From the NCBI GenBank assembly GCA_019915135.1, contig JAHLMK010000021.1:1-64000 (forward strand): a DNA stretch of 64,000 bases, in the 5' to 3' direction. Position 1 is the first letter of the stretch. The number at the start of each line of letters is the position of its first letter. The position numbers and the translations under genes are program-made. The DNA is from Strobilurus pachycystidiatus. Lineage: Eukaryota > Basidiomycota > Agaricomycetes > Agaricales > Physalacriaceae. Positions 4,144 to 34,579 of the stretch are shown here, one piece after another. The notes below the pieces were generated by a model. The model saw only the letters and a list, made by a program, of their open reading frames with translations, searched no databases and was not told where the DNA came from.

Positions 4144-4149
4144 ACTTTT

Positions 4150-5966: not shown

Positions 5967-5968
5967 GC

Positions 5969-12258: not shown

Positions 12259-14459
12259 ATGCCTCAACCTATTGCATCCACGTCGACCTATGATTCGCAG
12301 CGAACTATCCCTACACAGTCAAGTGGGCAAGGTAGAGCTGAAAGAATAAAGGATCTGGGCAAACGAATGGGAAGATTGAGCGTTGAAGAAGTAAGTCAAA
12401 TCGAGAAGATACGAATAAGACTTGACTCGATTTTAGTCGCAACCAGCTGGTCAGCACAAAGAGTCGAGAAAAGGAAAAGAAAAGGCTCGAGTAAGAAATT
12501 CGAGCATGACTTTTCATTAGGCTAATCACTGTGACAATAGACAGTTGACGCAGCGATGGAACCAGAGACAAGGGACAGTTCGCATGAAAACGAGGTAGGT
12601 AGAAAATCGAAGTTCGATTTTCTACTTAGTTAACATTTCGAACTAAGACCCCGCTTATGGCTCTAATGCCAATCGAAAAGTTCTGGACCAACCCAAAGAA
12701 CAATGGAGAGCTTCATGCCTATGCGTTCTCGAGCCAAGTCGACTATCGGTGGAAACTCAACCTAAGTCTACTAGAACGACAGGAATTCATACGAGGCAAC
12801 ATGGACAAGATCAAGGAAATCCTTATTCGAAAAGGTATCGATAACCGCGATCTACATGTGGCTAAGTCTTGGTGTTACCTGGTAACGGCAGTGATAGTCG
12901 ACCCAGTGTTCCAGAAAGCAGACCCGAATAGCCGTTGGTGGCGCCTAGCCGGTCTAGATTCGTTGATGGCCAAAGCTGTCAATGGTGCCTTGGAGAAAGG
13001 GAAGGGTTCCAATCGACCTATCCCCGCCGTCGAAACACCGCCAACAAAGTTCCTGTACTTCGGCAATACAAATCTTCCCAGCAAGTACCGCATTCGACCT
13101 TCACATGACGTGTGTGGGGACATTGTGCTTGGAAAGCGGCGGATTTACGAAGTAGCCATGGAGCACTTCAACCAGCAGATCCCCCCGCATAACCACTTCG
13201 ACGTATTCTTTTGGACATCGCTACAGCAGGCGGTAACATTCGAGAAAATCGAAATCGAAAATTCGTTTTACTACGTGCTGGACAAGGCGATATCCGAAGG
13301 TCTGAAGAAGATGTTCAACAGAGAACCGACAACCTCGGGACTTAGAGAGTTCTTCGACTTCGACGCAAGACAGGATCTTAACATAGAACCTTTCACACGT
13401 CGACCCGAAGACCAGGATTGGCACCTGGTAATTGAATCAATCTCGTACCGGAGAGAAATGTATAAAGTCCCGAAGATGCGAAAAAGAGAAGAACCTGCGC
13501 CCGTGCCCAAAACCTTGCAAAAGGACCAGGCGAAGGCAATGGTAGAAGCTCCAACAAGGGAGATGAAAGAGGTAAGAAAATCGAATTCGAAGTTCTATTC
13601 GAGCTAGATTTAATTGGTCGATTTAGAAGACCACAAAGAAAGCCAACGCTAGAAAGAGCGAGTTGGAAAAGACCAAGAAGAGAGTAAGTAGAAATTCGAT
13701 TTCGAATTTCTATAAACTAACTTACACTCGAAGAAATATAACGAACTGTCGTTCATTACTGAACCCAGAACGTTAGAAGAAGAGGAAGAAGACCGTGGGC
13801 CGCCACCACCAAAGAAGGTCAAGCGACAGTACAAGAGCAAATCGAGCTCGAAAACTGTTCCGCCCGCGCGTCCTCCAACCCCTCCACCAGTAGCCTCATC
13901 ATCCAGAGTCCAACTCCCTGCGAAGCTCGACTTGGGACCAGTATTGGGTATGGAGACTGACGACGACTCTCATCGAACTCAGGATCCACCTAAGCAGAAG
14001 AGTCCAAAGAAGTCGAAGGTGAACGAACCCAAGGCCACGAAAATCGACAGTACTGGGGCAGTGTACACTAACAAGGAGGTTCAAGAACGAATTGACACCC
14101 TCAATTCGTGCTCGAATTGCTTGAAGGGTCACAGGGAATGTACTTGGGTTGCGGTTAACGAGCAACTTTGGGAACCCCAGGCGGCCAAAGTCAAGATTCG
14201 AATTTCTTGCGACACTTGCCATGACCGTCGAGTAATGTGCCAACCACCCGATGTCGATGGTGGTTTCTTCTATCACCAAGCCAAGAAGATACCCGCCTTC
14301 GAAAAGATGAAGGATACGTTGGAAAGCAAGGGTACCGAGCTGAGGGATGCTGAAAGACGCATCAAGGATTTGGAAGAAGAGCTGCAGAAGGAGAAAGAGG
14401 CCAAGAAGAAGTTAGAAAAGAAGTTGGCTAAGGATAAGAAGAAGAGAGCAAGAGAGTAA
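12259..14459 (+). CDS. Accessory gene A1: coiled-coil protein with stretched Zn2Cys6-like cluster
   Basis: Six exons joined in phase 0 (introns 12391-12436, 12491-12540, 12595-12647, 13572-13626, 13684-13733) give about 648 aa. I do not recognise the N-terminal two thirds. The C-terminal part has CSNCLKGHREC, 22 residues, then CDTCHDRRVMC, that is C-x2-C-x6-C-x22-C-x2-C-x6-C. This is the Zn2Cys6 spacing of fungal transcription factors but with a longer linker. A charged heptad-like coiled coil (ERRIKDLEEELQKEKEAKKK) follows to the end. Basic, Pro-rich stretches precede the cluster. Gene A2 and element B gene B1 share this C-terminal architecture. It is sense to the element but has its own TATA-like box. 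I infer a nuclear DNA-binding dimer; no function is shown by the sequence. Several introns contain perfect inverted repeats right after the 5' splice site. Confidence 0.7.
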
Positions 14460-15722
14460 ATCGAATTCGATTTGACATTACCAGTCGGATTACTTTGACT
14501 TACTATTGGGACTTGAACTTTTTCTTACCCCTAGTTGAAATTCATATACGATTTTCTTGAACTAGACAGACTTAGGGTGCAGTAAGCCTCGAATAAGCCA
14601 AAAACAAAACGTTCTCGGTTTGCTTAGCACTATAAGAAAGAAGGGTTCGAATAGCTATGAAAAGATAGAAAATCGAAGAAATTTCGAAAAACGAGTACAA
14701 ACGAAGTCAAAAATCAAGAAATACTGTAACGCTTTATTGTGTGGTCGGTTTGACTTGAGCTTAGTTGGAAAGTTGTTCGAAATCAAAAATAAGCCCCTCA
14801 GTTTTTTCGCACGAAGCCTGGGGAGCGCCGTACGCAGAGATATTAAAGAAGTGACCTTAAAAGGCCCATAGAAGGTTTCCTGCCAAGATACGGATGTTGT
14901 GAGCTTCGAAACAGTCCGTATCTTGTTGGGAGCTTCAAATGAAACAGTCCGTATCCTCCTATAATGATCTAGGAAGTGAGATGGAGCCAATCGGTCAATT
15001 TGGGGCCAAACGGAGTATTTTGCCTTTTCTGGCGCGGAAAATGATCCAATCGACGATCGGACTTCAGATTTGGAATCCTGGCATCGATATCTACCAGAAT
15101 CACTTTTCAAAGTGAAAAACGGTCTATTCCTTACTGTCGGTCTAATGGGGTAAAGAAAGTTTAAAATCGATGGGGGCCAATTCGAGTTTGATTTGACCTG
15201 GGTACATTTGGACAAGTAAGAAACATAAGGGTCATAGAAAAGAAAAGCTTCAGAGCCTAGTAAAGCACTAAGGAATTGGCAAAATACGCTGTAAGATTAG
15301 AGAATTGAAGAAAAATCATACTCGATTTTCTTAGCTATCACCAGAGAAAGTTACCAAGAAAAAGAAGAAATATTCAAGCTCGAATATCAAGATAATCAGC
15401 CTAGAAATAAAGGGGCAAAATCAAGTGCTTAAGAAGGGTCAGGAAGCGCTGGAGATGAGATCTATGACCTAAATAGGCAAGAATCTAGATCGTTCGAAGG
15501 CGCTGATCCATAAACGTGTGCAACTGCGCATGTCGGACTTAGAAATTCGAGTCAGAAGAAGTTGTCACCGTCGGGTACTCGGAAAGCGATAATCGGTGTC
15601 GTATAAAAGCTGGGTCTTCGAGTCTGAAAAACTCTTTTCCCCCCCCCACGACGCTTACCACTCGCACTACGACCCTCGATTTCGATTTCCACCTTTTCGA
15701 CCTCGAATTTCTTCCCACCACC
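14460..15722. other. Intergenic region between A1 and A2 with A2 promoter
   Basis: A TCGA-AT-TCGA palindrome sits at 14461-14470 directly after the A1 stop. A direct repeat of GAAACAGTCCGTATC occurs at 14908-14922 and 14941-14955, with the complementary ATACGGA just upstream. The A1/A2 shared upstream block is at 15556-15583 and a TATAAAAG box at 15602-15609, about 115 bp before the A2 ATG. A 186-codon antisense open frame at 14655-15215 has no recognisable feature and is not called as a gene. Confidence 0.45.
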
Positions 15723-17181
15723 ATGCCCATGAAAGACATCGTAGCCGCTATGGACCAGACTCAAAACAAGGGACAGCTTAGGGTTGGCGGAGTCAACATC
15801 ACGAAGGGCCATAACTTCTTGTTCTTGGGCCGGAAACATGTGGACCCCCTCATTTATGTCCCCGTCTTCTCCACACAAGCCACTGCAGCTCAGTTGTGGT
15901 ACTTCCCGGATTCGTTGCGCAAGCTAGCGCCCAAACACCATTTCTACGAATTCGCGGCTCGATATGCTAGCACCATCAATCCGCTCGACTTCCAACTGGA
16001 ATTCGAGATCGAAAAGGTCGATGCCCTGCTTTTCGAAGCCTACGTGCTATGGTTCGTTTGGACGCTTGCACAAGGAGAACCGGAGCGGGAAGATGAAATC
16101 GACATTGAGTGGATGGTTCAAGAATACGAGGTTTTGCTGAGCTCGGTAAAGATTCAAGTATAGACAAGATTCGGACTGAAGCTAATAAAACCTTCTAGCC
16201 GCAACTTGTCTTGAAACAGATGCGAGAAATCGCAGAAGAAAAAGAGTGGCCTCTGGAACGGCCTACAGTGTTCAATGAAGAGGTAAGTAAAGAAATTCGA
16301 ACGCAAATTCCTTACTTAACAAAGATAAGATTTTCTTTGACGATGAAGAAGACGAGTCCGCCTCAGAAACGGACAGTGAAGATCAAGAATCGGAGTTGAC
16401 AACCAGAAACTCGACCCCGAAATCCTCCACACCCCTTTCCACGCCCAAGCCTAGACCTCGACCCACTCCGTTGAAGTCTGCCGAAGCGAAGGCAAGGATG
16501 GAGAAAGAAAAAGGGAAGCCAGCTAGAGCTGAGACACCGGTAAGAAAATCGACTTTGAATATCTTCAATTTGAATGAGATTTTCTTATGCCCTGTCCAGC
16601 GCACCCCCATAGCTTCTACTTCCAAGCAAGCGTTGGAACCCGAACCAGGAAATTCGCCTTCGAATTCCCTGCCAACGCCCAAGGCCCTTTCTCATTGCCC
16701 TCAGCCAGCGCCTAAACGAATTCGAAAGCGAAAACGTGCCGCGACCCCAGTAGAGGAGGAAGAGGAAGCGCCAGAGCCCAAGAAACCGAAGACCAATTCG
16801 AAGCCGAAATCCTCCACTAGCCGCCCGTCCAAAGCGGACAAGCACGGCAAAGTGTTGGACAACAAGGCGATGCAGAAGAAGATCAACGTGGATCGCAAGT
16901 GTCTCACCTGCGAGCAGCGAGGGCAAGAGTGCACTTGGGAGTATATGCTGAATCAGCGGGACCACCCAGACACCGTCAAGACGAAGACTTGTGTATCTTG
17001 CGACCGTTGCCGGGTCAAAAGGTACACTTGTTCACCGCCCAAGCGCCGCTACGATTACTTCAAGCACAAATCCAAGAAGGATGTCGAATTGGACAAGGCG
17101 GCTGAAGAGTTGACGAAGGCAAAGGAAGAGATCGACAAGCTGAAGAAGAAGTTGAAGAAGGCGAAGAAAGCGAAGGAGTGA
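15723..17181 (+). CDS. Accessory gene A2: second Zn2Cys6-like coiled-coil protein of element A
   Basis: Four exons (introns 16146-16198, 16283-16329, 16540-16599, all phase 0) give about 432 aa. The N-terminal domain (about 170 aa) is not recognised. A low-complexity Ser/Thr/Pro and acidic middle follows, then CLTCEQRGQEC, 22 residues, CDRCRVKRYTC. This is the same stretched Zn2Cys6 spacing as A1, with the CDRCRVKR core very close to Gal4-type clusters. A Lys/Glu coiled coil ends the protein. A1 and A2 are probably diverged duplicates at least in this C-terminal module and their promoters. The last intron (60 nt) can be read through in frame, but its first bases TAAGAAAATC pair perfectly with GATTTTCTTA at 16578-16587, a typical hairpin of this element. 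Confidence 0.7.
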
Positions 17182-17413
17182 TTCGAGCTCGATTTTCTAA
17201 AATAGACAATCGGACTAGTTTTACTTACTGGACTTTAACTTTTTCTTTTACAAACACGCATTTCTTGTAGACTTTAAAAATTTTACTTGACGCTTCTAAC
17301 GCTTTGAAGAACGAAAAAGATTAAGATGCAAATAAGAAATTCAAGATCGAATTGTAGAAACTTGATGTGGATAAAAGACATGTTGAATTTCAACGATTCG
17401 GTACGAACAATTC

Positions 17414-17428
17414 AAAGTTAAAGGGAGA
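17414..17428 (+). other. Internal (central) polypurine tract copy, element A
   Basis: AAAGTTAAAGGGAGA is identical over 15 nt to the 3' polypurine tract at 20821-20835. It lies between the convergent ends of A2 and M2. Element B has its own internal copy in the same place (31146-31160), matching its own 3' tract. A central plus-strand primer is the natural reading. Confidence 0.65.
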
Positions 17429-17444
17429 CATATAAGAAATGTAA

Positions 17445-18615
17445 CTACTCCCTCCAATGTGGCTCTATACAAAAGTGTCGAAACAAAGGACTGTTACCTC
17501 TATTATACAGCCTAGTATAAAAAGTATAAAGTTGTTCAGGCAACAAGGAAGCTACAACGTGTTGTAAGAGGCGAATGTCCGCAGCAGAGGCAGTTGACCA
17601 AGTAATTTCCCAAAAACGTTTAGGTATATTGGGAAAATCCTGGTCGATAAGCCTGTTAAGAAAGAAGTCAGAAATTCGAATTCGAGTTTCTAACAAATGC
17701 TTACGTGGGATATATAGGGCCTGCAGCATTAAGACCTTGGCGAAGAGTAGAGAAACTGAACTCGCGATCCCGAAATAGTCCTTGACTACCAGGCATAGGG
17801 TCAAGAACCCGGTCTTCATAGAACCGTGGAATCCAAGTAATCAGCTCGCGAATGTACACTGGAATGCCTCGCGTGGAGGGAGGGATGCTGCGCATCCATT
17901 CGACGTCCTCGGGTGACATTATGGTGTTCAAGTACCGAGGCAATGATTGTTCGGTAGAAAAGAACGCGGTTTCCTATGAAGTGATAAGAAAATCGATCTC
18001 GAATTTCTAAGCCAAGAAAAATAACATACCAAAGATCGCATGGTAACCGCTAGGAACTTCTCTCGAAATTCACCAAATGACAAGTGAATAATCGACTCGG
18101 GTAAGATATGGGGAAGAGTAACCCCGTCCAATCCTCGAAGCGGTTCCTCGTGAAAGAAGGACATCACAAGATGCCAACAGAGAATGTACATAGACAAAAA
18201 GCTATTTTCCACACCACGAGCAGTAACGGGGGCAACATGTCGCCATAAGTTACTGTAGCGTCGCTAGGAGGATAGTCAGAGAAATTCGAACAAGGAATGC
18301 TAGCTTGATTTTCTCACCAGCACATACACCATATACCGCAAGGTAGGAACGTCCAAGTTACCGTGGTGTCCACCAAAGAAAAGATGACGATCCGTATGGA
18401 AAGCCGTCTCTCGATGATCCACGTCGCCCAAGCTACCGTCGGGCTCTCGTTCCACCATCACAAAGTCGCGGTGTACGCTATAAAGATCCAGAGCGGACGC
18501 AACCGCTAATTCAGCCTCGAGAAACACGGCAACATCGTCGGGAATAATGGCGAAGCTGGAGTGAAGATTGCGGAACCTAAGTTCGCAGAAAAAAAGGGAA
18601 ATTCATCTGAGTCAT
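17445..18615 (-). CDS. Antisense accessory gene M2 of element A, unrecognised family
   Basis: Exons read leftward: from about 18615 to 18318, 18263-18030, 17973-17705 and 17652-17445, with introns 18264-18317, 17974-18029 and 17653-17704. The protein of roughly 335 aa has no domain I can name. It is clearly related to M2 of element B (shared DVPTLRYxxxVLV block after a REPDGSLG/RHPDGTLA segment, and a shared C-terminal helical region). The start is uncertain: an ATG at 18615 is separated from the conserved frame by a 7-T run (18589-18595), where one base fewer would restore the frame, so either the run is a mutation or the start lies elsewhere. Introns carry TCGA palindromes in hairpins. Confidence 0.6.
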
Positions 18616-18975
18616 GGTGATGAATGTCCACCACTCGAAAAGATCAAATTTATAAGAATCGAGAAGAAAGGTACCAAACCGATTAAGAAAAGAACCAAGA
18701 CCTAAGTAAAGAAACCAATAGGAGATAATCGAACCCGAATTTCTCGGGTCCGATTATCGAATCCAAGATCAAGAGTAAGAATGTCTATATGCAGACCGAC
18801 AGATAATAATACATGCGCGAGTAGACTAAAAAGATAAAGGTCCGTCGCGTAAGCCCCAAGCCTCCGGTACACTAGTCACAGTTCAAGCCAAGATTTCCGA
18901 CTAGTTACTTTGTAAAGAACAAGTCATCAATTACTTATGCTAAGAAGTATCAATGATGACTTGGCTCCCGATGAT
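18616..18975. other. Gap between antisense genes M2 and M1 of element A
   Basis: No gene is seen. It contains an inverted repeat around 18727-18762 (ATAATCGAACCCGA...TCGGGTCCGATTAT) in the presumed promoter region of the leftward M2 gene. Confidence 0.35.
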
Positions 18976-20576
18976 CTAAGGGACCAAAGAATCAGTCGCG
19001 GCCAGGTACAGGTCCCTCGTGCGCAGGAAGGTTTGAACCTCCCCGTGAGCCCTGTTCATGGTCAAGGACAACTCGTGGCGATAGCCGTGTTCCGCGGCTA
19101 CCATCGACGCGGAAAGAGCCAAGTCCGCGGGAAGCGCAGCCAAGATCTGCATTCTGCGAACAATGGCAGAACTGGCACCTTGGTAAGCGTTGACCAACTG
19201 AGCGGCTGTCAAGAAAACAAATTCGAGTTAGATACACCCAAAATCAAAATCGAATTTGTTACTCACTAGAAGACAACTGATCAATGAGGACGGGTTCGAT
19301 GTTAAACCCAGCGGGTTTAAGAGCCTTGGCCATCCTCTTGGATTCAGGAAGAGCAACAGTGGCCTTGCGCTTGGGAGCCGTCTCCAACTGAGCAGTAGGA
19401 ATGGATCCCGACGTCGCCACAGCCTTGTGATACAAGGAAGAATTAGTATCCAGGCCGGGTACTTCACAATAGTAAAGATATTTTACCGAGCGAGCAGACT
19501 ATATAGAAGTCAAAAATCGAGCTCGAAAAGCTAAAGAGCCAATAACTCACGGCTTCAGAGGCTGTAGAAGCGGGAGGTGTAGCAACCTCGACCACTTCTT
19601 CATCGCTATCCTCTTCGTCGGAAGACTCCACGGAGAGCTGTTTAAGAAAAGCAGCCAGATCAGCCTCGTAATCTAGACCGAAAAGGCATCAGAAGCTTAC
19701 TTCGGAGTCGGAAGAGTTTACTTCACCCATTTCTGAATGATCATCAGCCCATTGGAAGCCATTAGTAAAAGAAGATTTACTAATGTCGCCAGAGGCAAAT
19801 CGAATAGGATCGTCCAGAACGGTGGAAGAAGAAGAAGCCTTCTATAACATAAGACATAAGAAATTCGAACTCGAAACACAGAAAATCGAAATACGAACCA
19901 GAACCTTGAGCTTGTTCTTACCCTTGGGTTCGGGAGATTTAGCCTTCTCCTTACCCTTGGAAGAGGAAGCCTCGATGAGTTTCTTCCATTTGGGATGGAG
20001 GGGATGGATCGAAGGAAGGCTGGCAGCTTCCGCCGCGATAGTACCCTTCTTGGTGCAAGTCATGACGAACGCGTTAAGCACATTGGCCAGGTTAACGGTA
20101 TGCAAGTGAGGGCTGACACCCAACTCGGAAACCGCCAAACCTAAGAACGAGCGAAGATTGCAGGAAAACGTGGCGAGCTTCTCGGGATAGATGCAACCGG
20201 AGACGTTGTCCTTGGGAAGGTTCGCTCCCTTATAAAGATTTTAGAAAATCGAGCACGAATTCATAAGAAGAGAAAATCGACTCACAAGAACCTTGATGAT
20301 GACCATGTCCAAAGACGCGGCCTTATCCTTGGCGGAAGCCTTGGAGCGGTCCATGTACTCGACCGATTTAAGGACCAAGGGACAGAGGCTGTTGTAAAGC
20401 GTCAAGACGGCGGGAACCAAACCCGTAGCAGGCGGATCCCAATATTTAATATGGATGAAGAGCGCTTTGCCATCAGCGAGGCGACGTTCAACTAGCTCGG
20501 GAACGGTGTCGGGAGCCTCATCAGGGATAAGGTTGACGATTCCGGTCCACGATTTCTTGGAAACAAGAGAAGGCAT
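18976..20576 (-). CDS. Antisense accessory gene M1 of element A, unrecognised family
   Basis: It starts at ATG 20576 (MPSLVSKKSW). Intron 20229-20285 is phase 0; further introns lie at about 19842-19898, 19660-19700, 19480-19545 and 19206-19266; the TAG is at 18976-18978. The C-terminal end (about 70 aa, helical, ending near TRDLYLAATDSLVP) matches the end of element B M1 (STRDLYISALDAI), and an APKRK...EPVL segment is also shared, so the two are homologous. Lys/Glu/Ser-rich and acidic low-complexity stretches occupy the middle. No enzyme motif is seen. I could not resolve the phase of one short middle intron. The last intron contains a perfect 11-bp inverted repeat (19216-19226 with 19250-19260). 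Confidence 0.6.
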
Positions 20577-20820
20577 TGTGAGAAGTGTAGAAGAATTTCG
20601 AGGGTGAAATGGTTAGCAGGTGCTGGGGCAAATCGACCAGAAACCGCCGACTATTTAACCAAGTTGCAAAGATAACACGAAGACCCAGCGAGCGCTTTGT
20701 TCGCGCCAACTGGAGTTGGGATTGCATCCGTGCAGACAAAACCCGAAGAGAGAACCAGAAAAATAAGCGAAATGAATTATGGTTCAGGGTGAAGATCTTG
20801 ATGTTGCGGACAACATATCG

Positions 20821-20835
20821 AAAGTTAAAGGGAGA
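20821..20835 (+). other. 3' polypurine tract of element A
   Basis: The tract is AAAGTTAAAGGGAGA, directly before the TGACACGC start of the right LTR, the standard position of the plus-strand primer. It is identical to the internal copy at 17414-17428. Confidence 0.8.
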
Positions 20836-24649: not shown

Positions 24650-24669
24650 GAAACTCCTATGAAGAAGCC

Positions 24670-27600
24670 GTGTTGATCCTTGAAAGGTCACCAGAAGGAA
24701 ACATCGAAGTAAAGCAAAGTTGGATACCTGGTGATAACAGGGAGACCTTCGGGGAAGGGGACTTAACGTCCTTATACATGAAGAAGTCACCCAATAGGGT
24801 TCATCAGGCAGCCAAACGGCTAAGGAAACAACACGCCTTTATGCATGCATCGATGCATCAAGCATCGACACATATGACTGTCCCAGAACATATGGTGACA
24901 CCTACGGGACTATTAAAAGTCCCAACCAAGATTCAAGGCTTTCGCAAGGTATTCAATATCAATCAGATTGCGGAAGACCAAGAAGAATTTAAGTCCTACG
25001 CCACGGCGACTTTGAGTCTCTTTTACGGGGTACCAAAGGAGTTAGAACAAGTCTTTACGGGCTTGTCGGTAACCTTACCAAAGGATTACATGGCGGAGGC
25101 ACAACAGGAGTTCCTAAGGTTGGAAAGTCAGATCCCTAAGAGGGGTGTATTCGTAGGAAAGAAGTACAAACCAGTAGCCTTGAAAACCAAAGCTCACCTT
25201 GGAACCTTACCTGAAGAATTCAGGATCAAGCGCCACATTCATGGAGACCCACTAGCTGGGATGCCAGAATTAGTACCTGATCCACCACCCTTCGTACCCA
25301 CAGGTAGGTATACTGCCGAAAGGAGGGAACAGATACAAGCCGACCACGTCGGGGACTTCCTGACGGATGCAGAAAGACGGATTATAGACTCCATCTTCTG
25401 TAACCAGAACGAAGGCTTTGCCTGGGAAGAATCTGAGAAAGGACACTTCAAACCAGAGTTCTTTCCACCAGTGGATATCCCGGTAATACCGCACACACCT
25501 TGGGTGTTAAGGAATATACCAATTCCACCAGGAATCTATGACGAAGTCTGTAAGATTATCAAACACAAACTAGACTCGGGCGTGTATGAGCCTTCGAACT
25601 CCTCATACCGCTCCAGGTGGTTCTGTGTTGTGAAGAAGGATGGAAAGAAACTTCGCCTAGTGCACAGTCTGGAACCACTCAATGCGGTGACCATTGCGCA
25701 CTCAGGGTTACCTCCAGCCACGGAGGAACTAGCGGAGTCCTTTGCAGGACGAAGTTGTGGAGGGACCTTGGACCTGTTCGTTGGATATGACGAACGGCTC
25801 CTTGCCACCGCGTCTCGCGATATGACCACCTTCTCGACACCTTACGGAGCGTTAAGGTTAAAGACCTTACCGATGGGTTGGACTAATTCAGTACCTATCT
25901 TTCATGACGATGTTACAACGATTCTCAAGGATGAAATACCAGCCTTCACCAGACCTTATATCGACGATGTGCCCGTCCGCGGGCCCGCCACGCGATATGA
26001 ACAAGCTGATGGTACCTACGAAACGCTTCCAGGTCATCCTGAAGTAAGGCGTTTCGTTTGGGAACACCTTGTGAACATGAACAGAATCATACAACGAATG
26101 AAACATGCCGGAGGGACCTTTTCTGGTCACAAGGCTATCATTTGTGCAGAAGAAATTGTGGTAGTGGGACATGTCTGTACCTACGAAGGTAGAAAGCCAG
26201 CTGAAGATCGCGTTAAGGTGATCTCGGATTGGCCCCCTTGTAAAGCGCTCACGGAAGTCCGTTCGTTCTTAGGAACAGCTGGAATCTTCAGAGCATTCGT
26301 AGAGGACTACTCTAAGAAGGCGTTACCTTTGACCAGGTTAACCAAAGACATTACCAAGTTCAGATGGACAGACGAGGAGCAGGAAAGTATGGATACCTTA
26401 AAGGAAGCCATACGAACTTGTCCGATGCTGAAACCACTGAATTATGAATGGTCCACGCCAATCACGCTGTCGGTAGACACCTCTTACCAGGCAGTAGGTT
26501 TCTATCTGTCCCAGGTAGATCCCAAGGACCCTAAGAAACGATACTTTGCCAAGTTCATGTCTCTGACATTGAACGAAAGAGAGGCAAGGTACTCGCAAGC
26601 CAAGCGAGAACTATTCGGGCTCTTCAGAGCTCTGTCCGCGTGCAAGTACTACCTTCTAGGGTGTAGAAAACTAGAAATTGAAGTGGATGCAAAATACATC
26701 AAGGGCATGTTATCCAACGTGGACTCCTTAGCGAACGCAAACCTGCAAAGGTGGGCTGAGGAGATCTTGATGTATCACTTCACGCTTGTACACGTACCAG
26801 GAAAGGTTCATGGCCCGGATGGTTTAAGTCGCCGTCCAGCTTCAGAGCATGATGTAGTAGTACCCAGACCTCACATAAACATAGAGGATGACGAGGTCAA
26901 TACCTTTGAGTACCAGGAGCCTAAAGGTCTGCCTATAGAGGAGCAGCCGTTAGACTTTGACACTTTCAGGAATGACATCGACAGTAGGGGAGGCTATTTC
27001 CAGGAAATAGTACGGAGTCCTTTACCAGACCATATAAAGGTTTCTAAAGCGGTAAGGACTTTGGGACTAGTCAATGTTAAGGATATCGAAGGTTGGATGC
27101 ATATCACGGAGTTCCCGGAGCTCAATAAGAGCAAAAGGGAGCGTTTGTGGGAGACCTATTTGCCCAAACTTCAACCTTACTTACAATCGGAAGATGTACT
27201 TGAGGACGAAGACTTGGAGAAATGGAGCAAAGACTTCTTTGTCCAGCATGAAAGGTTATACCGAACCCATTCGGACTCCCACCCCCGTCGAGTGCTACTT
27301 CCAAATGAACGAATCCCGGTTTGTAAAGCTCTACACGACCGGGCAGGACATAAAGGACAATATTCCGTGTTACAACTCATCATGAAGCAATTCTGGTGGC
27401 CAGGTATGGAGGTCGACATACGATGGTATGTAAGGACCTGTGTACTATGTCAGAAACGCCAGAAACGTAACATAAAGGTTGCACCAACGATTACTTTAAC
27501 TCCAGGTATCTACGAAAGGGCTTATATAGACACCTTCCGGATGCCTAAGGCAGGAGAGGAATCCACCCGAAAGAAACGGCCTTCAAAATGGGCCGGCTTC

Positions 27601-28515
27601 AACGCTGTGACCGTAGCAAGGTGTGGATTAACAAGTTGGCCAGAGGCAAGGGCTCTCAAGGAAGAGACCGCCGAGTCACTGGGAGAATGGATCTTTGAGG
27701 ACATTCTGTGCAGGTGGGGTTGTATCAAGGAAATTGTAACCGACAATGGGCCAGCAATCAAGAAGGCTTTAGTACATATTGAACAGAAATATGGTATTAC
27801 AGGTATCTTGATCACGGCGTACAATAAGCAAGCCAACGGAAAGGTTGAACGAGGACACTGGGATATCCGTCAATCTCTCTTCAAGGTATGCAGGGGTAAA
27901 CCCGAGCAATGGCCAGAGTTCCTACATGAGGTCCTTTGGGCGGAGCGCATTACCATAAAGAGAAGTCTAGGTACTTCAGCGTTCCAGGCAGTAACCGGTT
28001 GTGAACCAATCATGCCAATGGACCTGGAGGAATTGACTTGGCTGGTCGAAGCACCAGACGGATTGATCTCCCATTCGGACCTTATTGCCTTCCGAGCTAG
28101 GCAGCTCATCAAGCACAAAGAAGATACTGTCAAGCTAAGGTCAAAGGTCCTTCTAAATGAACAGAAGGCCGCGGCAAAGTTCCTAGAGGACTTCCAGAAC
28201 AGTATCCCTCGCTACAAATTCAAAACTGGTGAACTAGTACTAGTAAGGAACACTAGGATTGAATCAGAAATGAATGCGAAGTTCAAGGAAAGGTTTATGG
28301 GACCTTACGCGGTAGTAACAAGGACCTCGGCAGGAAACTATGTGGTCTGCGAGTTGGACGGGACAATCTACAAAGACAAGATAGCTCAGTTCCGTGTAAT
28401 ACCTTTTGTATCGCGACGAGATCCTATAGACCTTGGAAAACAATTCTTTGATCGACTACACTTCATAAGTAAGCCGATCACAAAGACCTTAGATGTCCTT
28501 GCGAGAACTACGTGA
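24670..28515 (+). CDS. Pol of element B: RT, RNase H and integrase, intact
   Basis: This is a 1281-codon frame reached by a -1 shift from protease. RT: TLDLFVGYDE, LPMGWTNSVP, PYIDDV at residues about 429-434 (YIDD instead of the commoner YVDD/YLDD). RNase H: LSVDTSYQAVGFYLSQ, SQAKREL, EVDAKYIKG, and the LVHVPGKVHGPDGLSRRP end common in gypsy elements. Integrase: zinc domain HDRAGHKG ... CVLCQKRQ, catalytic Asp in YIDTF (about 954), Asp in VTDNGPA (about 1025), Glu in NGKVERGHW (about 1060). A basic C-terminal region with RFMGPYAVV follows; no chromodomain is seen. All catalytic residues are present, so this pol could still act in trans. Confidence 0.93.
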   Translation: MLILERSPEGNIEVKQSWIPGDNRETFGEGDLTSLYMKKSPNRVHQAAKRLRKQHAFMHASMHQASTHMTVPEHMVTPTGLLKVPTKIQGFRKVFNINQIAEDQEEFKSYATATLSLFYGVPKELEQVFTGLSVTLPKDYMAEAQQEFLRLESQIPKRGVFVGKKYKPVALKTKAHLGTLPEEFRIKRHIHGDPLAGMPELVPDPPPFVPTGRYTAERREQIQADHVGDFLTDAERRIIDSIFCNQNEGFAWEESEKGHFKPEFFPPVDIPVIPHTPWVLRNIPIPPGIYDEVCKIIKHKLDSGVYEPSNSSYRSRWFCVVKKDGKKLRLVHSLEPLNAVTIAHSGLPPATEELAESFAGRSCGGTLDLFVGYDERLLATASRDMTTFSTPYGALRLKTLPMGWTNSVPIFHDDVTTILKDEIPAFTRPYIDDVPVRGPATRYEQADGTYETLPGHPEVRRFVWEHLVNMNRIIQRMKHAGGTFSGHKAIICAEEIVVVGHVCTYEGRKPAEDRVKVISDWPPCKALTEVRSFLGTAGIFRAFVEDYSKKALPLTRLTKDITKFRWTDEEQESMDTLKEAIRTCPMLKPLNYEWSTPITLSVDTSYQAVGFYLSQVDPKDPKKRYFAKFMSLTLNEREARYSQAKRELFGLFRALSACKYYLLGCRKLEIEVDAKYIKGMLSNVDSLANANLQRWAEEILMYHFTLVHVPGKVHGPDGLSRRPASEHDVVVPRPHINIEDDEVNTFEYQEPKGLPIEEQPLDFDTFRNDIDSRGGYFQEIVRSPLPDHIKVSKAVRTLGLVNVKDIEGWMHITEFPELNKSKRERLWETYLPKLQPYLQSEDVLEDEDLEKWSKDFFVQHERLYRTHSDSHPRRVLLPNERIPVCKALHDRAGHKGQYSVLQLIMKQFWWPGMEVDIRWYVRTCVLCQKRQKRNIKVAPTITLTPGIYERAYIDTFRMPKAGEESTRKKRPSKWAGFNAVTVARCGLTSWPEARALKEETAESLGEWIFEDILCRWGCIKEIVTDNGPAIKKALVHIEQKYGITGILITAYNKQANGKVERGHWDIRQSLFKVCRGKPEQWPEFLHEVLWAERITIKRSLGTSAFQAVTGCEPIMPMDLEELTWLVEAPDGLISHSDLIAFRARQLIKHKEDTVKLRSKVLLNEQKAAAKFLEDFQNSIPRYKFKTGELVLVRNTRIESEMNAKFKERFMGPYAVVTRTSAGNYVVCELDGTIYKDKIAQFRVIPFVSRRDPIDLGKQFFDRLHFISKPITKTLDVLARTT

Positions 28516-28855
28516 CCTTGAGCACACAGGACTGGACTACAGCTTCAAAAGGAAGCCAAGGTACCATACCAGATGACGGGGACGTCATCAGAAAAGTAAA
28601 GAGAGAATAGAGGGACATCGGTCCATTTATTCAAAGACTATAAAAATTTTATTTAAGACTTATTCTGTGCCCAGCTGGCTACAAAGGTAGCTAAGGTAGC
28701 ATTGAACTAAGGACAGAATAAGGAAGCAAGACAAGGCACGAGGCATCAGGGAAGTGGCGGGGTGCGAATAAAGAAAAGCTTAAAAGTGATAAGCCCGTAG
28801 GCGATGTGGTAAGCGCAGAAAAGGAAGCACCACTCACCGAACAACCACCACGACC
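28516..28855. other. Spacer between pol and B1 of element B
   Basis: No gene is seen. An AT-rich run around 28640-28655 (TATAAAAATTTTATTT) could be promoter or 3'-end signal. It contains repeated AAGGTAGC words. No tRNA-like sequences are present, unlike the same position in element A. Confidence 0.35.
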
Positions 28856-30966
28856 ATGCTCCCTCAAGAGAACGACCCCACTGTGGACGCGAAGGTAAGT
28901 ACCTGGCACGATCACAGCGTAGAACGAGGCGGTGAACTTACTTACCAAAAGGAGCAGTCACCGCCGCCATCGCAGCCGCCGACGAAAGGCGACCAGGAGC
29001 CTCCCGCAGTCCAGGAGGAGAAGGAAATGGAGGTGCAAGGGCAGGAGCAGGTGAGTAGTGACAAAAAACGCGTTGAGAAACGGCGAAACTCACCACTGCC
29101 ACCCCCCTCTGCTAGCTCCCGTCCATTCCCTGCGAAGCCAGGCCGGACCATGTCAAAATGACGCGTCCCCTGTTCGACTACAGCGGTTTCTTGACGAACA
29201 GGACCGCGCCGCCGGAACTAGACGCAGGTATCAGCCTGCACCTGGCCGAGTTGCTGTGCGCCAACCCAACGACGACACGGGAGATCTTGCAGAAGGCCGG
29301 GTACTACGACTACCTGCACAATGGGGTCTTCTGGCTGACGTTCCAGGACGCGCTGGCGGCGAAACCAGCCAGCAGGGCCACTCCGCTCGAACGAGTGGAG
29401 ACCGCGCTCAGCACCGCGTGGCGCGCCACCTCCGCCTACAAAAAGCAGGTCCGTCCCACTCGAGCAACCACGTTCCTGAACAACGACCGCGTAGCCCCAG
29501 AGCTCGCCATCCGGCTCTCAGAAGACGACGCTCAGCGTTGTTTTCTGGAGTTGGACTATCTCTGGATGTTCGTGAATGATCAGGATCGCGCCAACCTGTT
29601 CTGGGGCGCCTTGATAGTGGAGATGCGCAAGCAGCGCGACAACCTCCCCATCCACAGGTCGTTCCTCAAAACGATGGACGAACTCATCGAGAGCGCGATT
29701 GCCGAGCTGGGTATCACGGACTACCAGCGCGAAGGGACGCCGAGTCTCGACAGCAAGGTCGACGACGAGGGAACTCCGCGCCCCACGATGCAACAGCTCG
29801 CGCAGGAGGCGTCGCCCAGTCCCCACGACTCGCGAGCCCCGTCTCCAGCATTCTCGTCACACCACGAACCCACGCCCGAGATGGAACCTCCCCAGCGACG
29901 ACCAGTTGTCGCGGCGGGTAAAGGTGGCCCCAAATCGGTTACCAAGTACGTCCGCCGAACCATCGCGCCGCTAATCCTTGCTAACGCCTCGACCAGGCCA
30001 AAGGCCGTCGTCGTGAAGGTGGAGCCAAAGGACAAGGACAAGGACGTCGCCCCCACCCGGAAGACCTCGGTCGCGCGCGCCACCACCGGTGGAAGCCAAA
30101 AGCGCAAGTTCGTCGAGGAGGAACCAGAGGAGGAGGACGAGTTGGACAAAGACGCCGAAGCCAGCGACGAGGAGGAGGACGACTTCGTCCTCGACGTCCG
30201 CGACAAGACCAACCCGCGCATCCCCCTCCACCGCGACGACGGTGTCTGCGTCCCCTGCATCAAGCAGCGGTTGACGTGCACCTACTTCCGGATCCACGCC
30301 ACGCCCGCCGAGAAGAACAATAGCTTCACGTGCGACCAGTGCAAAGAGAAGGACGGACAACATGGTCCGTGCTGGGTCGCGTGGAGGCGAAGTCAGGTCC
30401 CCGCGCCGTGGAAGGAGGTCGCGCTGAAGGTCCGCGCCCAGTTGCAGGCCGAGGCGAGGAACAAGCCCGACTCCCAGATCCGGTCCCGCCGCCATCAGGA
30501 CTACTCCGACGCCGCCCAAGCTATCGCGAAGGAAGCGGACCAGCGGTGGAAGGAGGAGAAGCAGCGGAAGAAGGACGAGCCCCCGGCAAAGCGCCGTCGC
30601 GTCGAGAGCACCGCGGGAAAGAAAGGCAAGGCCAAGAAGGAGGAGACGTCGGACGAAGAAGGAACTGGCGACTCCGACATCGAGGAGGTCCAAGCGCCCC
30701 GTACCCGCCTCCAGAAAGGAAAGGTCAGCGCCGCCCCGCCTCCCGCCTCCACCAAGTCCTCGAAGGGGGCCACCATCTCGATCAGCACGGCCCAGCGACA
30801 GGACAAGGGCGAAGGAGCCAGCCGTCAAGACGCGTCGTCCTCCGCCTCCGCCAGCCGCATCGACCCCGCCGAGGACGTGGACAAAGTCCTGGCGCTGTAC
30901 TTCTCCCTGAGTGAGAAGAGCCGCCGGAAGTTTAGGAAAGTCGCCGAGATCGCGGTGGGACGCTAG
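28856..30966 (+). CDS. Accessory gene B1: Zn2Cys6-like protein of element B
   Basis: Three exons (28856-28894, 28952-29050, 29116-30966; introns 28895-28951 and 29051-29115, all phase 0) give about 662 aa. The N-terminal region is Pro/Glu-rich. A roughly 200-aa folded region is not recognised but may match the corresponding part of A1. Acidic low-complexity precedes a cysteine cluster CVPCIKQRLTC, 17 residues, CDQCKEKDGQHGPC (C-x2-C-x6-C-x17-C-x2-C-x9-C). Lys/Arg-rich nuclear-localisation-like segments (AKRRRVE) and a helical C-terminus follow. It occupies the place of A1/A2 in element A. Both introns hold a perfect complement of their own 5' splice site: GGTAAGTA 28894-28901 with TACTTACC 28939-28946, and GGTGAGT 29050-29056 with ACTCACC 29088-29094. 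Confidence 0.7.
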
Positions 30967-31349
30967 TAGCGTCCCGCCGTCATATCTTTTTTATATACAA
31001 GAATACTAGTCACAGTGCCAAAAGGACACTTTACATATACGCATCCCCCGCCCCGTTGTATTCTATAAAAATTTACAACTTCTTGTACTCGAAGAACCGT
31101 GTGAAAACACTAAGGAAACAAGAACAAGGACCTTAGTCGAAACCTTAAGTCAAGGGGAGAGTCCAGGACTCTCCTTGATATACCAAAGGTCGCAAAGGTC
31201 AGAGGTTAGGGCCCTTGGAAGTCAAAAAGGACCACAAGGAACTGCGTTGCAAGTAAAGTAATACAGGCAGCAGCAATGTGACTATAAGGAACGTTCGTAA
31301 GGAAGAAAAGAAAGGCGACCTTTAGGCCAAAAGAGAAGTCAACTAAGGA
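30967..31349. other. Convergent spacer of element B with internal polypurine tract
   Basis: TAAGTCAAGGGGAGA at 31146-31160 is identical over 15 nt to the 3' polypurine tract at 34580-34594. Directly after it GGAGAGTCC/GGACTCTCC forms a 9-bp inverted repeat (31156-31174). Otherwise I see only short AAGGTC-type repeated words and no gene. Confidence 0.6.
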
Positions 31350-32486
31350 CTAAGCAAAACGACTCCAATCAGGAGGGACCGCAAGGTTCGCAAGGCGCGC
31401 ATAGAAAGGTCCTGCGTGGCTAAGGTCGATTGCTAACATACTAGCAGCAAGGAGTTCGTAGTCTACTTCGGTGGCCTCCGACCAGTCAATGAGCCAGAGT
31501 AGTGGATCGATGATAGGCAGCGACTGGTTGGGGCGCTGGAAACACAGAAGTTACAAACGGGCCTCAAACTACGAAGTTGTTCACAGACCCGATTGGCGGG
31601 AAGGTCAATCTCGGGGATCAACCGACGCATATTGGGAGGTCTATCCAACGCGTAGGCGTCGTCCCAGCCGTAAAGAGCAGAGTTCTGACGTTGGAACTCT
31701 GGCCACCACTTCATAACCGTGACAAGGTCGGCAGGAAGGTCCCCATACTGAACAGGAAGGACCTTCAGGTCGTCAGACCCGATGTAAAGCGAGCGAAGGA
31801 GTGTGGAAAAGCCGGAGTAACCACCAAAGTGGGCCTCGACCTACGCCTAAGGTCAGCGCCGACCACAAGACATGAAAGGAAGAGACCAGGTTTAACTCAC
31901 CATGAAAGGTCCGATGAACTCTTGGGTAAACCAAGGGTGACTCGCAAGGATGTCCATGTTCAGGTCCCCCAGGTGGAAGCGGGCGCCTTCACCGTCAAAG
32001 GTATTGCCTTCGGCGAACCAAGCCTTGCAAAGTTCGACGGCGGTGTAGTACAAAGGAAAGAAGTGCGCCTTGAAACCGTGAGGAATGGCCCCGTTCTGGA
32101 AGTGAAAAGCGGGTTCCCAGATATAACGAAAGCGGACCTAAGTACCATCCGTTAAACAAGAAGGGTGTCGAGACAAAATCAACTAGACTGACCAGAACGT
32201 GCAAAAGATAGCGCAAGGTTGGGACGTCTAGAGGTTCGTCGCGCCCAAAGGCATGAACCGGAGGCTTGAGCTGGGGAAGGAGGCGAGTGTCGTCCTCCGT
32301 AGCTAAGGTCCCATCCGGATGACGGACTACCGCAACGAAGTAGCGTGTATAGTTATACATCTCCATGGCGCAGCTCAGTGCAAGGTCCGCTGTGACTAAG
32401 TCAGTTTGAAAGGAGGTCAACGGCGAGCGAAGTCGAACGCCTTGAATGCGCGTATCTGCAAAGGAAGGCAGGACGGGTGCGGGCAT
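31350..32486 (-). CDS. Antisense accessory gene M2 of element B, unrecognised family
   Basis: ATG at 32486 (MPAPVLPSFADTR); leftward exons joined across an intron with donor after ...LRYLLHVL (about 32192) and acceptor near 32137, a second near 31900-31845, and a third near 31570-31530; TAG at 31350-31352. The protein is about 330 aa. It shares with element A M2 the RHPDGTLA...DVPTLRYLLHVLV block, a middle region around FHFQNGAIPHGFKAHFFPLYY, and a helical C-terminus. No domain or motif is recognised. Conservation of reading frame, introns and orientation in two diverged elements argues that it is a functional element gene. Confidence 0.62.
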
Positions 32487-32861
32487 GATCAAAGATGAGA
32501 TTCCTGTCCCCAGGACCGACTTAAAAGAGGACCCCTCGTCAGTCGAAGGTCCGAACGAACCGATAAAATGCAAAGTTTAGGCGCCACCTATCTAAAGGTA
32601 GGTACGATCGGCGATAGCCGATCGAACTAAGTTCGATCTTAGACCTACCAAGGTGCGGTCAGGAAAAACTTTAAGGGTTCAAATCGAAAGGAGTTGGATT
32701 ATGCACCAACTGGGCCTAGAGTAGTCTAAGGAAACAAAGTGACTACCGCTCCTACAAGTAGAGAAGAAATCCGAAACCAGTATAAAGACGAAGTAGAGAA
32801 AAACTATGAGTAGTACTGGTTAAGACTTGGCGAAAGCTAAGCTAAAGAAGGACCTTGTAGT
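32487..32861. promoter_or_regulatory. Spacer between antisense genes of element B with overlapping hairpins
   Basis: CGATCGGC-GATA-GCCGATCG (32605-32624) is a perfect 8-bp hairpin. It overlaps a second 9-bp inverted repeat GATCGAACT/AGTTCGATC (32620-32638), and both are nested inside an outer pair GTAGGT/ACCTAC (about 32599 and 32643). It lies just upstream of M2. No gene is seen. Confidence 0.5.
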
Positions 32862-34396
32862 CTACTGAGCCTGGTCAATCGCGTCTAAGGCCGAGATATA
32901 AAGGTCGCGAGTCGACTGCAAGACTTGGATACGACCCCGAATCTCGTTGAAGGTCGAGATAATGTCGTGCCGGTACTGGCGTTCCAAAATGACCAAGTTG
33001 GGCGAGATGTTGGGATCGTCAAGACCAGACAACCTTGACATACGCTTGTGGACTTGGGCCAAGGCAGCAGACAGACCATTGATGTACTGGTTCGCTAAGG
33101 GGAAGTAACCAGGAATCAACAAGGCAAACCAAGAAGCAAGGAAGAAGCACCTTACCGCCTTCAAGTTGTTTAAGAACGACGGGTTCGACTCCAAAGGTCG
33201 AAGGCCGGGCCGCCTTTACAACACGGCGAGCGTTCTCATCGTTAAGCTTACGCTTAGGAGGAGCTTCTTGACCATTGATCGCGCCCAAGGTTTGAAGGGC
33301 TTTCTGGTAAACACGGGCGTTAATGTCCATACCAGGAAGAGCTGCGAAAGGAAGGTAACGGACGGAAGATGACTATTAAAGAAGTCATAAGGACGTCCGG
33401 GACAAACATAGGATTCAAAGGAACGTACCGCTTCGGCTTCCTTTGACAAGGAATTGGCGAGTTGGAGCTGGCGAAAGGCTTCAATAAAGGAAGATGAGAC
33501 TGGCAAAGAAATTGAGCGCACAGTATCACCGACGACGACAACGGAGTCCTCACCGTCGCTCTCGCCAGCTGCCACATCGTCAGCCCAATTAAAGTACTCC
33601 GGACGAAAGAAGCGCGCACAAGAGTCGGGATCCATCGCAACGTCGCCGTCTCCCGTCTCGGCTCGTTTCTCCATGGCCTCGGTAACGACCTCGGGCGATT
33701 TCTTCGTCTTCTAAGCGAAGACATCCAGAGGTTACAGTAGGAAACCGACGAGTAACGAACGGACATACCTTGCCTTTCTCAAGCTTGTCCGGCTTGAAAT
33801 AAGTGTTATCCGGATGCATAGGGTGACCCGGGGACAGGCCAGGGAAGTGGGCGTTAGACGCCTTCTTGCAGCTGCTCACCAAAGGTTGGAGGATATGAGC
33901 GATGTGGTGCGTCGGCGTCTGAGGGTGAATCCCCAGCAGGTGTACCAGCATCCCTACATAGAGGCGAAGGTTGAAAATGAACACCGCCATGTCCGTCGAC
34001 ACCTTGGAACCATTCGGAAAGGTGCGAAGGTCATGGGCGACGGCCTAAAGAAAACAAGGACAGGATGAAGTCAGGATCAGGAAAAGAACACAGCGAAGGA
34101 GTACACACAAGGACTCTCTCCATGATCTTGTCAACATAGCCGGTGATCTCCAGTGCCACGTCGGGATTCGAACACGCCTTCTTGAGGTCCAGACGATGGA
34201 CCTTGGGAATGATGAGCGTAAGATGCATGCCGAGGTACATAAGGAAGTCGGGTGTGTTGGCTGGAGGGTCGTAGTCGAGCGCATAAGCGACGAGACCGGC
34301 GCCAAGGTCGCGCGTAGTGATCAGGTCCTTCGCGGACGGAACGTGCGGCGTTGTGGGAAGCAGTTTTGCGATGGGAGTCCAAGTTTTGGGAGCCAT
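32862..34396 (-). CDS. Antisense accessory gene M1 of element B, unrecognised family
   Basis: ATG at 34396 (MAPKTWTPIAKLL). Leftward exons cover TTRDLGAGLVAYALDYD, then AVAHDLRTFPNGSK with VHLLGIHPQTPTHHIAHI, an acidic middle (FNWADDVAAGESDGED), PGMDINARVYQKAL with PPKRKLN, and a final helical exon ending TRDLYISALDAIDQAQ at 32862. It is homologous to element A M1 by the PKRK...EPVV segment and the C-terminus. One intron (about 33430-33345) needs an unusual donor to keep frame, so its exact limits are uncertain. No known domain. Confidence 0.6.
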
Positions 34397-34579
34397 GATA
34401 GAATAAAGGCAGGAATGAAAGGTCTGAGGACAAGTCTCAGGACCTTTTATAACGGAACGAAGTTAGGCAAAAGAGGGTCCATCGGGCGATAGAAACCAAA
34501 AGGGGACTTCGTCACGACGGCCTGGTACCCAGGATAAAGGTTCTGAACCACCAAGGACTATGTCGCGGACGACATTTCA

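What the first reader, a model, noticed from the sequence alone, without database searches (positions are those of the whole stretch)
12259..34396. A conserved four-part accessory module carried by giant gypsy-like LTR elements
After pol, elements A and B both carry sense gene(s) encoding coiled-coil proteins with a stretched Zn2Cys6-like cluster (A1 and A2; B1) and then two antisense genes, M2 and M1. The antisense genes are clearly homologous between A and B (shared DVPTLRY block in M2; shared TRDLY-type C-terminus and PKRK segment in M1) although the elements are strongly diverged. Retention of intact frames, introns, order and orientation argues that the module does something for the element. 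I know of no described fungal Ty3/gypsy family with this set, though I cannot search.
Basis: partly seen in the sequence, partly recalled or inferred. Interest (0 to 1): 0.9.

Follow-up and report, generated by a model that had tools for sequence, protein, structure and literature searches.

The report
Retrotransposons that tag their own DNA
In a genome that is likely fungal, dozens of large LTR retrotransposons carry three or four extra genes that bear the mark of purifying selection and are strewn with a short DNA word typical of their family, which one of those extra proteins is predicted to recognise, perhaps so that the element escapes silencing.

Summary
The observed module is real. Element A (LTRs 2313-4143 and 20836-22666, 2 mismatches) carries A1, A2, then antisense M2, M1; element B (5'-truncated, 3' LTR from 34595) carries B1, M2, M1. 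The set recurs in order and orientation in 28 of 52 B-type and 15 of 17 C-type elements; 18 of 20 A-type elements keep antisense M2. New here: (1) families are strewn with their own DNA word, AAWTCGA in A (often the dimer TCGA-N2-TCGA), AAGGWC in B, AAGGMGTT in C, in LTRs, spacers, introns and even gag/pol frames beyond synonymous-codon shuffles; (2) B1 is hypervariable (up to 27% DNA difference in its N-terminal part where LTRs differ by at most 1.3%) and recombining; (3) derivatives without B1, M2 and most of M1 have multiplied. Best reading: the six-cysteine protein binds its family's word in trans, likely as an anti-silencing or activating factor, working like Arabidopsis VANC without shown kinship. 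Binding is untested. Antisense genes in fungal gypsy elements have a precedent (Boty brtn).

The parts
2313..4143 (+). 5' LTR of element A
   Evidence: 1831 bp, 2 mismatches to the 3' LTR
4128..5966 (+). gag open frame of A, with zinc knuckle
   Evidence: zf-CCHC below its cut-off
7078..10991 (+). pol of A (two overlapping frames, 7078-10266 and 10215-10991)
   Evidence: RT 82% identical to B
12259..14459 (+). A1, intron-containing gene; six-cysteine cluster at 14109-14240, charged, coiled-coil-like C-terminus
   Evidence: first exon from sequence reading only
15723..17181 (+). A2, second cluster gene; cluster at 16900-17031; cluster half 33% identical to A1 over 104 aa
17445..18600 (-). M2 of A, antisense; frame interrupted near its start in this copy; start approximate
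18976..20576 (-). M1 of A, antisense, seven exons modelled
20801..20835 (+). hairpin (6-bp stem) and polypurine tract before the 3' LTR of A
   Evidence: sequence
20836..22666 (+). 3' LTR of A
2313..20835 (.). dispersed A-family word AAWTCGA, 103 sites (58 noncoding, 45 coding); 16 noncoding TCGA-N2-TCGA dimers
22667..28515 (+). element B, 5'-truncated in gag; pol 24544-28515
28444..31404 (.). hypervariable cassette holding B1 and its flanking spacers
29158..30966 (+). B1, cluster protein; cluster 30247-30372; an upstream exon is possible
31350..32486 (-). M2 of B, antisense, four exons modelled
32862..34396 (-). M1 of B, antisense, five exons modelled
34560..34594 (+). hairpin and polypurine tract before the 3' LTR of B
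   Evidence: sequence
34595..36268 (+). 3' LTR of B
   Evidence: second LTR matches in L012, L019 and L026 start at 34595; main matches end at 36264-36271 in most full copies
24544..36268 (.). dispersed B-family word AAGGWC (35 sites in 3680 bp noncoding 28516-36268; 26 in pol 24544-28512)

Best explanation
Between pol and the 3' LTR these Ty3/gypsy elements carry a module under purifying selection, one or two sense genes for a six-cysteine cluster protein plus the antisense genes M2 and M1, and the cluster protein is predicted to bind in trans a short family-typical DNA word strewn over the whole element, likely keeping the element's chromatin open against host silencing. Shown: the module, its conservation and selection, the words and their strand symmetry, the hypervariability of B1, and the multiplication of copies that lack the module. 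Inferred: that the cluster folds with zinc and binds the word (the A word is an inverted repeat with fixed spacing, as expected for a dimer), that binding covers LTR, introns, spacers and pol alike, and that the outcome is anti-silencing or activation. M1 and M2 would be expressed from an antisense promoter in or beside the 3' LTR and likely act with the cluster protein; their biochemistry is unknown. B1 alleles are reshuffled between elements, plausibly by template switching, while the cysteine cluster stays almost constant, so the variation would concern what the N-terminal domain contacts, not the word.
For: Selection: pooled pN/pS over 45 pairs of ten B copies 0.07 M1, 0.14 M2, 0.19 B1; pooled A genes, window against L032, 0.14. 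B1: 33 B-type rows keep a stop-free frame of 595-617 aa at 81-100% identity. Module in order and orientation: 28 of 52 B, 15 of 17 C; M2 in 18 of 20 A. Words: AAWTCGA 58 in 6661 bp A noncoding (shuffled 5.8, sd 2.4), 1 in 3680 bp B noncoding, 4 in 27 kb flank; AAGGWC 35 in 3680 bp B noncoding (5.7, sd 2.3), 5 in A noncoding (6.7). TCGA: 16 of 27 neighbour pairs up to 20 bases apart lie exactly 6 apart. Inside frames, against synonymous shuffles: A pol AAWTCGA 15 vs 3.7 (max 10 of 500), A gag 6 vs 0.8 (max 4), B pol AAGGWC 26 vs 9.6 (max 18); crosswise controls at or below expectation; gag/pol sites in all frames and on both strands. A palindrome genome-wide: 32 places, 31 within 16 kb of an A-type RT or M2 hit, reversed control 0. 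C word AAGGMGTT: 20 sites in L029 plus L030, 1.4 expected. Trans action: derivatives multiplied.
Against: No binding, expression or methylation data. The words were picked from the noncoding sequence of the same elements, so those counts are descriptive; under the synonymous null unrelated frames reach similar top z for other 6-mers. Words of B and C are not exclusive: AAGGWC is about twofold in C (48 vs 21.8 over L029 and L030), AAGGMGTT is 4 vs 0.7 in B. The TCGA dimer is not enriched in A pol (1 vs 0.5), AAGGWC not in B1 (8 vs 8.2; all 8 in one frame). CpG is not depleted in the elements (o/e 0.86-1.09) and CpGs inside TCGA are not better preserved (15 of 118 against 33 of 365 show transitions): no mutational trace of methylation or of protection. 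The cluster scores below Pfam's Zn_clus cut-off (A1 10.8 of 21 bits; no match in B1); the AlphaFold2 model leaves it unresolved. A1 is only weakly constrained. L009 has a broken B1 frame, L025 a 29-column gap in M1.
Confidence: 0.4

Rival explanations
1. The cluster protein is a conventional transactivator of the LTR and of the antisense promoter, like retroviral Tat/Tas-type factors (recalled), and the words outside the LTRs are spill-over.
For: Words are present in the LTRs (A LTR 9 vs 0.8, B LTR 18 vs 2.5); the antisense M1 frames start about 200 (B) and 260 bp (A) from the LTR.
Against: Words are also dense in introns and spacers and enriched in gag and pol frames, which an LTR activator does not need.
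Confidence: 0.25
2. The words are a by-product of a mutational or copying bias, or of inherited word usage, and the module serves the particle, RNA export or another step unrelated to DNA binding.
For: Words occur in coding sequence too; other frames in this genome show comparable top z values for other words; B and C partly share theirs; M1 and M2 match no known family.
Against: Strand symmetry and an inverted repeat with one fixed spacing in A (16 pairs at 6, 2 at 7, at most 3 at any other spacing up to 20). AAWTCGA is at or below expectation in B and C, AAGGWC in noncoding A, although the RTs are 82-91% alike.
Confidence: 0.2
3. The system controls copy number or targets integration: the protein recognises the family's own DNA and either represses it or steers new copies into old ones.
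For: 32 of 94 elements lie within 50 kb of another; nested neighbours (L023; A beside B); hypervariable B1 would suit self/non-self discrimination.
Against: No insertion site was shown to lie at a word; A has no clear target duplication; clustering has ordinary explanations and was not compared with other repeats.
Confidence: 0.15

Closest known systems
VANC proteins of Arabidopsis VANDAL DNA transposons (PMC5735166, outline and first part of Results read; PMC10398659, abstract and outline read)
   Same: Element-encoded protein; short family-specific motifs in introns, intergenic and terminal regions of the element; related families use different motifs.
   Different: VANDALs are plant DNA transposons; VANC21 was shown to bind its motif, here binding is inferred; VANC21 favours noncoding DNA and VANC targets often form tandem repeats, here the words also lie in gag and pol frames; the proteins here matched no Pfam family above its cut-off.
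Retand lineage of plant Ty3/gypsy elements with antisense TRP28 ORFs (PMC11963269, abstract and outline read)
   Same: Very long pol-3' LTR region with antisense ORFs; possible DNA-binding accessory protein; non-autonomous copies.
   Different: There the putative DNA binder is the antisense TRP28 protein; here the cysteine-cluster gene is sense and two other genes are antisense; no Pfam match of M1 or M2.
Boty / BcGypsy1 of Botrytis with the antisense gene brtn (Zhao 2011, not read; cited in PMC7264820 and PMC8365987, passages read)
   Same: Fungal gypsy element with an additional antisense gene.
   Different: One named gene; its sequence was not compared here.
crapaud of Podospora anserina (PMC10787394, abstract and outline read)
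   Same: Fungal LTR element whose copies differ strongly in one stretch.
   Different: There the variable stretch is the 5' half of the LTRs; here it is a coding cassette under purifying selection while the LTRs are uniform.
Transposon-borne TET/JBP dioxygenases of fungi (PMC12730594, abstract and outline read)
   Same: Mobile elements of fungi carrying a presumed anti-silencing gene.
   Different: DNA transposons and an enzyme; no such Pfam match in the module's frames.

Membership tests
Ty3/gypsy LTR retrotransposon | LTR pair, gag, pol with RT-RNaseH before integrase | tested here: met
   RT_RNaseH and RT_RNaseH_2 before Integrase_H2C2 in B pol; LTR pair in A
Ty3/gypsy LTR retrotransposon | target-site duplication at the insertion | tested here: inconclusive
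   left CGCGG, right GCGCG at A, no duplication seen, but the two flanks do not belong to one interrupted sequence, so the original site may be lost
Fungal Zn2Cys6 cluster (PF00172) | profile match above cut-off | tested here: not met
   A1 10.8 of 21 bits; B1 and A2 no match
Fungal Zn2Cys6 cluster (PF00172) | six conserved cysteines with C-x2-C-x6-C and C-x2-C-x6..9-C halves | tested here: met
   six invariant cysteines in 12 of 12 aligned B1 proteins; the middle loop is longer than usual (usual length recalled)
VANC-type anti-silencing system | family-specific motifs dispersed in the element | tested here: met
   B and C words overlap in part
VANC-type anti-silencing system | protein binds the motif and lowers DNA methylation | not testable with these tools
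   needs EMSA/ChIP and methylome
VANC-type anti-silencing system | homology to VANC proteins | tested here: inconclusive
   no Pfam match above cut-off; VANC sequences themselves were not compared
Boty brtn-type antisense gene | homology of M1 or M2 to brtn | not tested
   brtn sequence not at hand
Retand TRP28 antisense gene | TRP28 domain in an antisense ORF | tested here: inconclusive
   no Pfam match of M1 or M2; whether TRP28 is in that library was not checked

The most novel reading that the evidence does not exclude
Probability: 0.33. Interest if true: 0.9.

Novelty: new variant of a known kind. Interest (0 to 1): 0.77.

Why it matters
It would also suggest why some gypsy elements carry long pol-3' LTR regions, and give a natural set of DNA-binding clusters and words (A, B, C) for studying how such specificity evolves. 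Even without the mechanism, a protein cassette that differs by up to 27% in DNA in its N-terminal part between copies whose LTRs differ by at most 1.3%, with pN/pS near 0.2, is an unusual pattern of recombination and selection inside a transposon family.

Tried and rejected
Host genes captured by chance: rejected for the bulk, 198 of 213 kept M2, M1 and B1 hits lie within 16 kb of an RT row; two isolated hits were not followed up. Neutral decay: rejected by pN/pS. Protein homologues: M1 none among 8000 scored candidates (I suspect the database rarely holds spliced genes, so this says little); B1 two unnamed proteins, 67% and 46% identical, and no more with a profile. Structure: the AlphaFold2 model of B1 has mean pLDDT 50, with only about the first 190 residues moderately confident; no PDB match with E up to 0.001. 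PDB sequence search: nothing below E 0.14. Protection of CpGs inside the word: not seen. B1 as source of word diversity within family B: unlikely, as the cluster is nearly constant. D-type elements (RT 50-52%): no B1, M2 or M1 of this kind in 5 of 5 rows and 2 of 2 loci. L023 was left in the first B1 pN/pS run although its B1 is a nested C-type gene; the cited values come, without it. L011 was aligned but dropped from the counts, because its BLAST match ends at 34078.

Rows dropped: the tally used 94 of the 105 RT rows (11 partial or frame-broken rows left out), 77 of 95 M2 rows, 75 of 79 M1 rows and 61 of 92 B1 rows, about one per element, chosen by hand. Only 20 of the 51 other B-type elements were read as sequence, and 2 C, 2 A (L032 usable; L031 had no module) and 2 D elements. 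The tools score only the best candidates, so copy numbers are lower bounds.
Full report
What is there. The window is the start of contig C21 of a 51.8 Mb, 61-contig genome that I take to be fungal, probably a basidiomycete, from gene content and short introns; no call names it. Element A runs from 2313 to 22666 with LTRs of 1831 bp differing at 2 positions, hence a young insertion of 20.35 kb. Element B begins in mid-gag at the end of A's 3' LTR (22667), has an open 1323-aa pol frame, and ends in a 3' LTR at 34595-36268. The left flank of A shows no match to B and there is no clear target duplication, so the junction was rearranged or joined.

The module. After pol, A carries A1 and A2 on the sense strand, then M2 and M1 antisense; B carries B1, then M2 and M1 antisense. 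In six frames of the whole window the stretched six-cysteine cluster occurs only in A1, A2 and B1. A1 and A2 are related in their cluster half (33% over 104 aa, E 3e-16); M1 of A and B are homologous over their length (26%); M2 is homologous at 38% over 71 aa. None of the accessory frames scanned matches a Pfam family above its cut-off.

How widespread. RT of B finds 105 rows; of the 94 kept, 52 are B-type (94-100% identical), 17 C-type (89-91%), 20 A-type (81-82%) and 5 D-type (50-52%). B1, M2 and M1 lie within 16 kb behind the RT, in order and on the expected strands, in 28 of 52 B-type and 15 of 17 C-type elements (a further B row, C3:555745, picks up the genes of a nested C element). M2 lies there in 18 of 20 A-type elements; the B queries for M1 exon 1 and B1 found nothing in A-type elements, the window's own A included, so those genes could not be counted this way. 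D-type elements have none of these three (5 of 5 rows), but both D loci read carry their own stretched cysteine-cluster frames behind pol, on the antisense strand.

Selection. Over ten B copies and 45 pairs, pooled pN/pS is 0.07 for M1, 0.14 for M2 and 0.19 for B1, and no stop appears when the copies are projected on the window's frame; yet L009 has a broken B1 frame and L025 a 29-column gap in M1. For A, window against L032, the pooled value is 0.14; A1 alone is weakly constrained (16.5 nonsynonymous changes in 1340 sites against 7.5 in 364), A2 and M1 strongly; only one exon of M2 was counted, and L032 has one stop in A2. Pairs share ancestry, so the ratios are summaries, not tests.

Hypervariable B1. 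Between the same ten copies the mean pairwise difference is 0.9% in the LTR (at most 1.3%), 1.0-1.2% in M1, 2.7% in M2 but 12.7% in B1 and 17.3% (at most 27%) in its first 543 bases; the peak spans 28.4-31.4 kb. Pol DNA is 97-99% identical to the window's in the 39 other copies scored, the best 40 of 120 candidates. The window copy and L015 differ by 0.6% in the LTR and 23% in the N-terminal part of B1; the window copy and L025 differ by 7.5% there but by 9.7% in the C-terminal part, where L025 is nearer to L016 (5.1%, against 22.9% in the N-terminal part), which points to recombination inside the gene. B1 distances correlate weakly with LTR distances (Mantel r 0.37, p 0.023). Old, still constrained B1 alleles have thus been shuffled into young elements. 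The cysteine cluster hardly varies among them.

Stripped derivatives. Seven of 20 fetched B copies share one deletion from 28757 to 33840 that removes B1, M2 and the 3' part of M1 (L017, L019, L022, L023, L024, L026, L028; L022 has a further loss in M1); two more lack nearly all of M2 and M1 (L013, L014). Genome-wide, 13 of 52 B-type rows show neither B1 nor M2 (11 with M1 exon 1 only, 2 with nothing), and L023's row is a fourteenth once the nested C element is discounted. The seven keep pol frames of 1294-1323 aa. The module is therefore not needed in cis; if it is needed, it works in trans.

The words. A k-mer scan of noncoding A and B gave the ATTCGA/AATCGA and AAGGTC/AAGGAC groups. AAWTCGA: 58 in 6661 bp of noncoding A (shuffles 5.8, sd 2.4), 45 in 11862 bp of coding A (5.3, sd 2.3), 1 in noncoding and 0 in coding B, 4 in 27 kb of flank (7.7). 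AAGGWC: 35 in 3680 bp of noncoding B (5.7, sd 2.3), 58 in coding B (13.3, sd 3.2), 5 and 17 in noncoding and coding A (6.7 and 14.9), 38 in the flank (28, sd 5). In A, 16 of 27 neighbouring TCGA pairs up to 20 bases apart are exactly 6 apart, giving an inverted repeat of the form GAAAWTCGA-N2-TCGAWTTTC; 9 of 12 intron stretches examined contain TCGA (some intron edges approximate). One form of that palindrome, GAAATTCGANNTCGAWTTTC, occurs at 32 places in the genome, none for the reversed pattern; 31 lie within 16 kb of one of 20 A-type RT rows or three further A-like RT/M2 hits that I added by hand. Most are homologous copies of a few sites, so this shows specificity, not 32 independent origins.

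Words inside genes. With synonymous codons shuffled among the positions of each frame, AAWTCGA is 15 against 3.7 in A pol and 6 against 0.8 in A gag, AAGGWC 26 against 9.6 in B pol, beyond all 500 shuffles; the crosswise counts (AAGGWC in A, AAWTCGA in B) are at or below expectation, the TCGA dimer is not enriched in A pol (1 against 0.5) and B1 itself is not enriched (8 against 8.2). In gag and pol the sites fall in all frames and on both strands; in B1 all 8 are in one frame. So in gag and pol neither amino acids nor an RNA signal explains them. A caution: scanning all 6-mers, unrelated frames also reach z near 5 for some word (for example CTCCGA in L008); what stands out is that the top words of A and B frames belong to the groups already found in their noncoding DNA. 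The C family has AAGGMGTT (10 each in L029 and L030, 0.6-0.8 expected; the two are related copies), but B shows 4 of these against 0.7, and AAGGWC is about twofold in C, so B and C share the AAGG core. GAAGGW is 59 against 14 in D locus L033 but only 24 against 11 in L034, and is raised in B and C too.

How it most likely works. The pairing of a cysteine-cluster protein with a family-typical, strand-symmetric, in A palindromic word spread over LTRs, introns, spacers and enzyme genes is best explained by a DNA-binding protein that coats its own element. Coverage of the whole length, not only of LTRs, favours a chromatin function, anti-silencing as in VANC (PMC5735166), over a simple transactivator. 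Trans action would explain the derivatives. The diversity of the N-terminal half of B1, with a constant cluster, would reflect escape from or engagement with host factors. None of this has been tested by experiment, and the CpG analysis gives no support for methylation or protection.

Against the literature. Searches of the held library listed papers on plant antisense ORFs, Boty brtn, VANC and transposon-borne TET genes; in those listings I saw no fungal gypsy family with sense cluster genes, two antisense genes and dispersed words. Most papers listed were not opened and subscription papers are mostly not held, so this is not proof of absence.

Noticed in passing
11160-11237, 11324-11414, 11548-11620 (-): Three tRNA-like genes in a row between pol and A1, antisense; two reach Rfam's tRNA cut-off; all three are found in 4 of 4 further A copies fetched.
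   Followed up: partly
20801-20816 and 34560-34575; L029 and L030 near 6260-6290: A 6-bp-stem hairpin (ATGTYG-N4-CRACAT) next to the polypurine tract is kept in A, B and C, with one compensatory T-A to C-G change between A and B/C.
   Followed up: partly
2308-2312 and 22667-22671: No target-site duplication round A; its left flank shows no match to B although its right flank is B's gag.
   Followed up: partly
17445-18600: M2 in the window's copy of A has its frame interrupted near the start; the 21 other A-type rows are open for 150 aa or more there.
   Followed up: partly
L033:3931-4935 (-); L034 (reversed) 2020-2529 (-): D-type elements, only 50-52% alike in RT, carry their own stretched cysteine-cluster frames behind pol, antisense.
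   Followed up: no
L004, L008: Another RT-bearing family shows TCCGGA/CTCCGA enriched in its pol frame under synonymous shuffling; the word habit may reach beyond these families, or be background.
   Followed up: no
G000:C26:446533-446751, G000:C4:2500614-2500973: Isolated M2-like and M1-like hits more than 400 kb from any RT row; remnants or host copies.
   Followed up: no
G000:C10:687000-760000, C11:973000-1024000, C3:1137000-1179000: B-type elements lie in clusters; 32 of 94 elements are within 50 kb of another.
   Followed up: no
28793-29161: An open frame upstream of B1 may be a further exon; C-type B1 lacks a start codon at the matching place.
   Followed up: no
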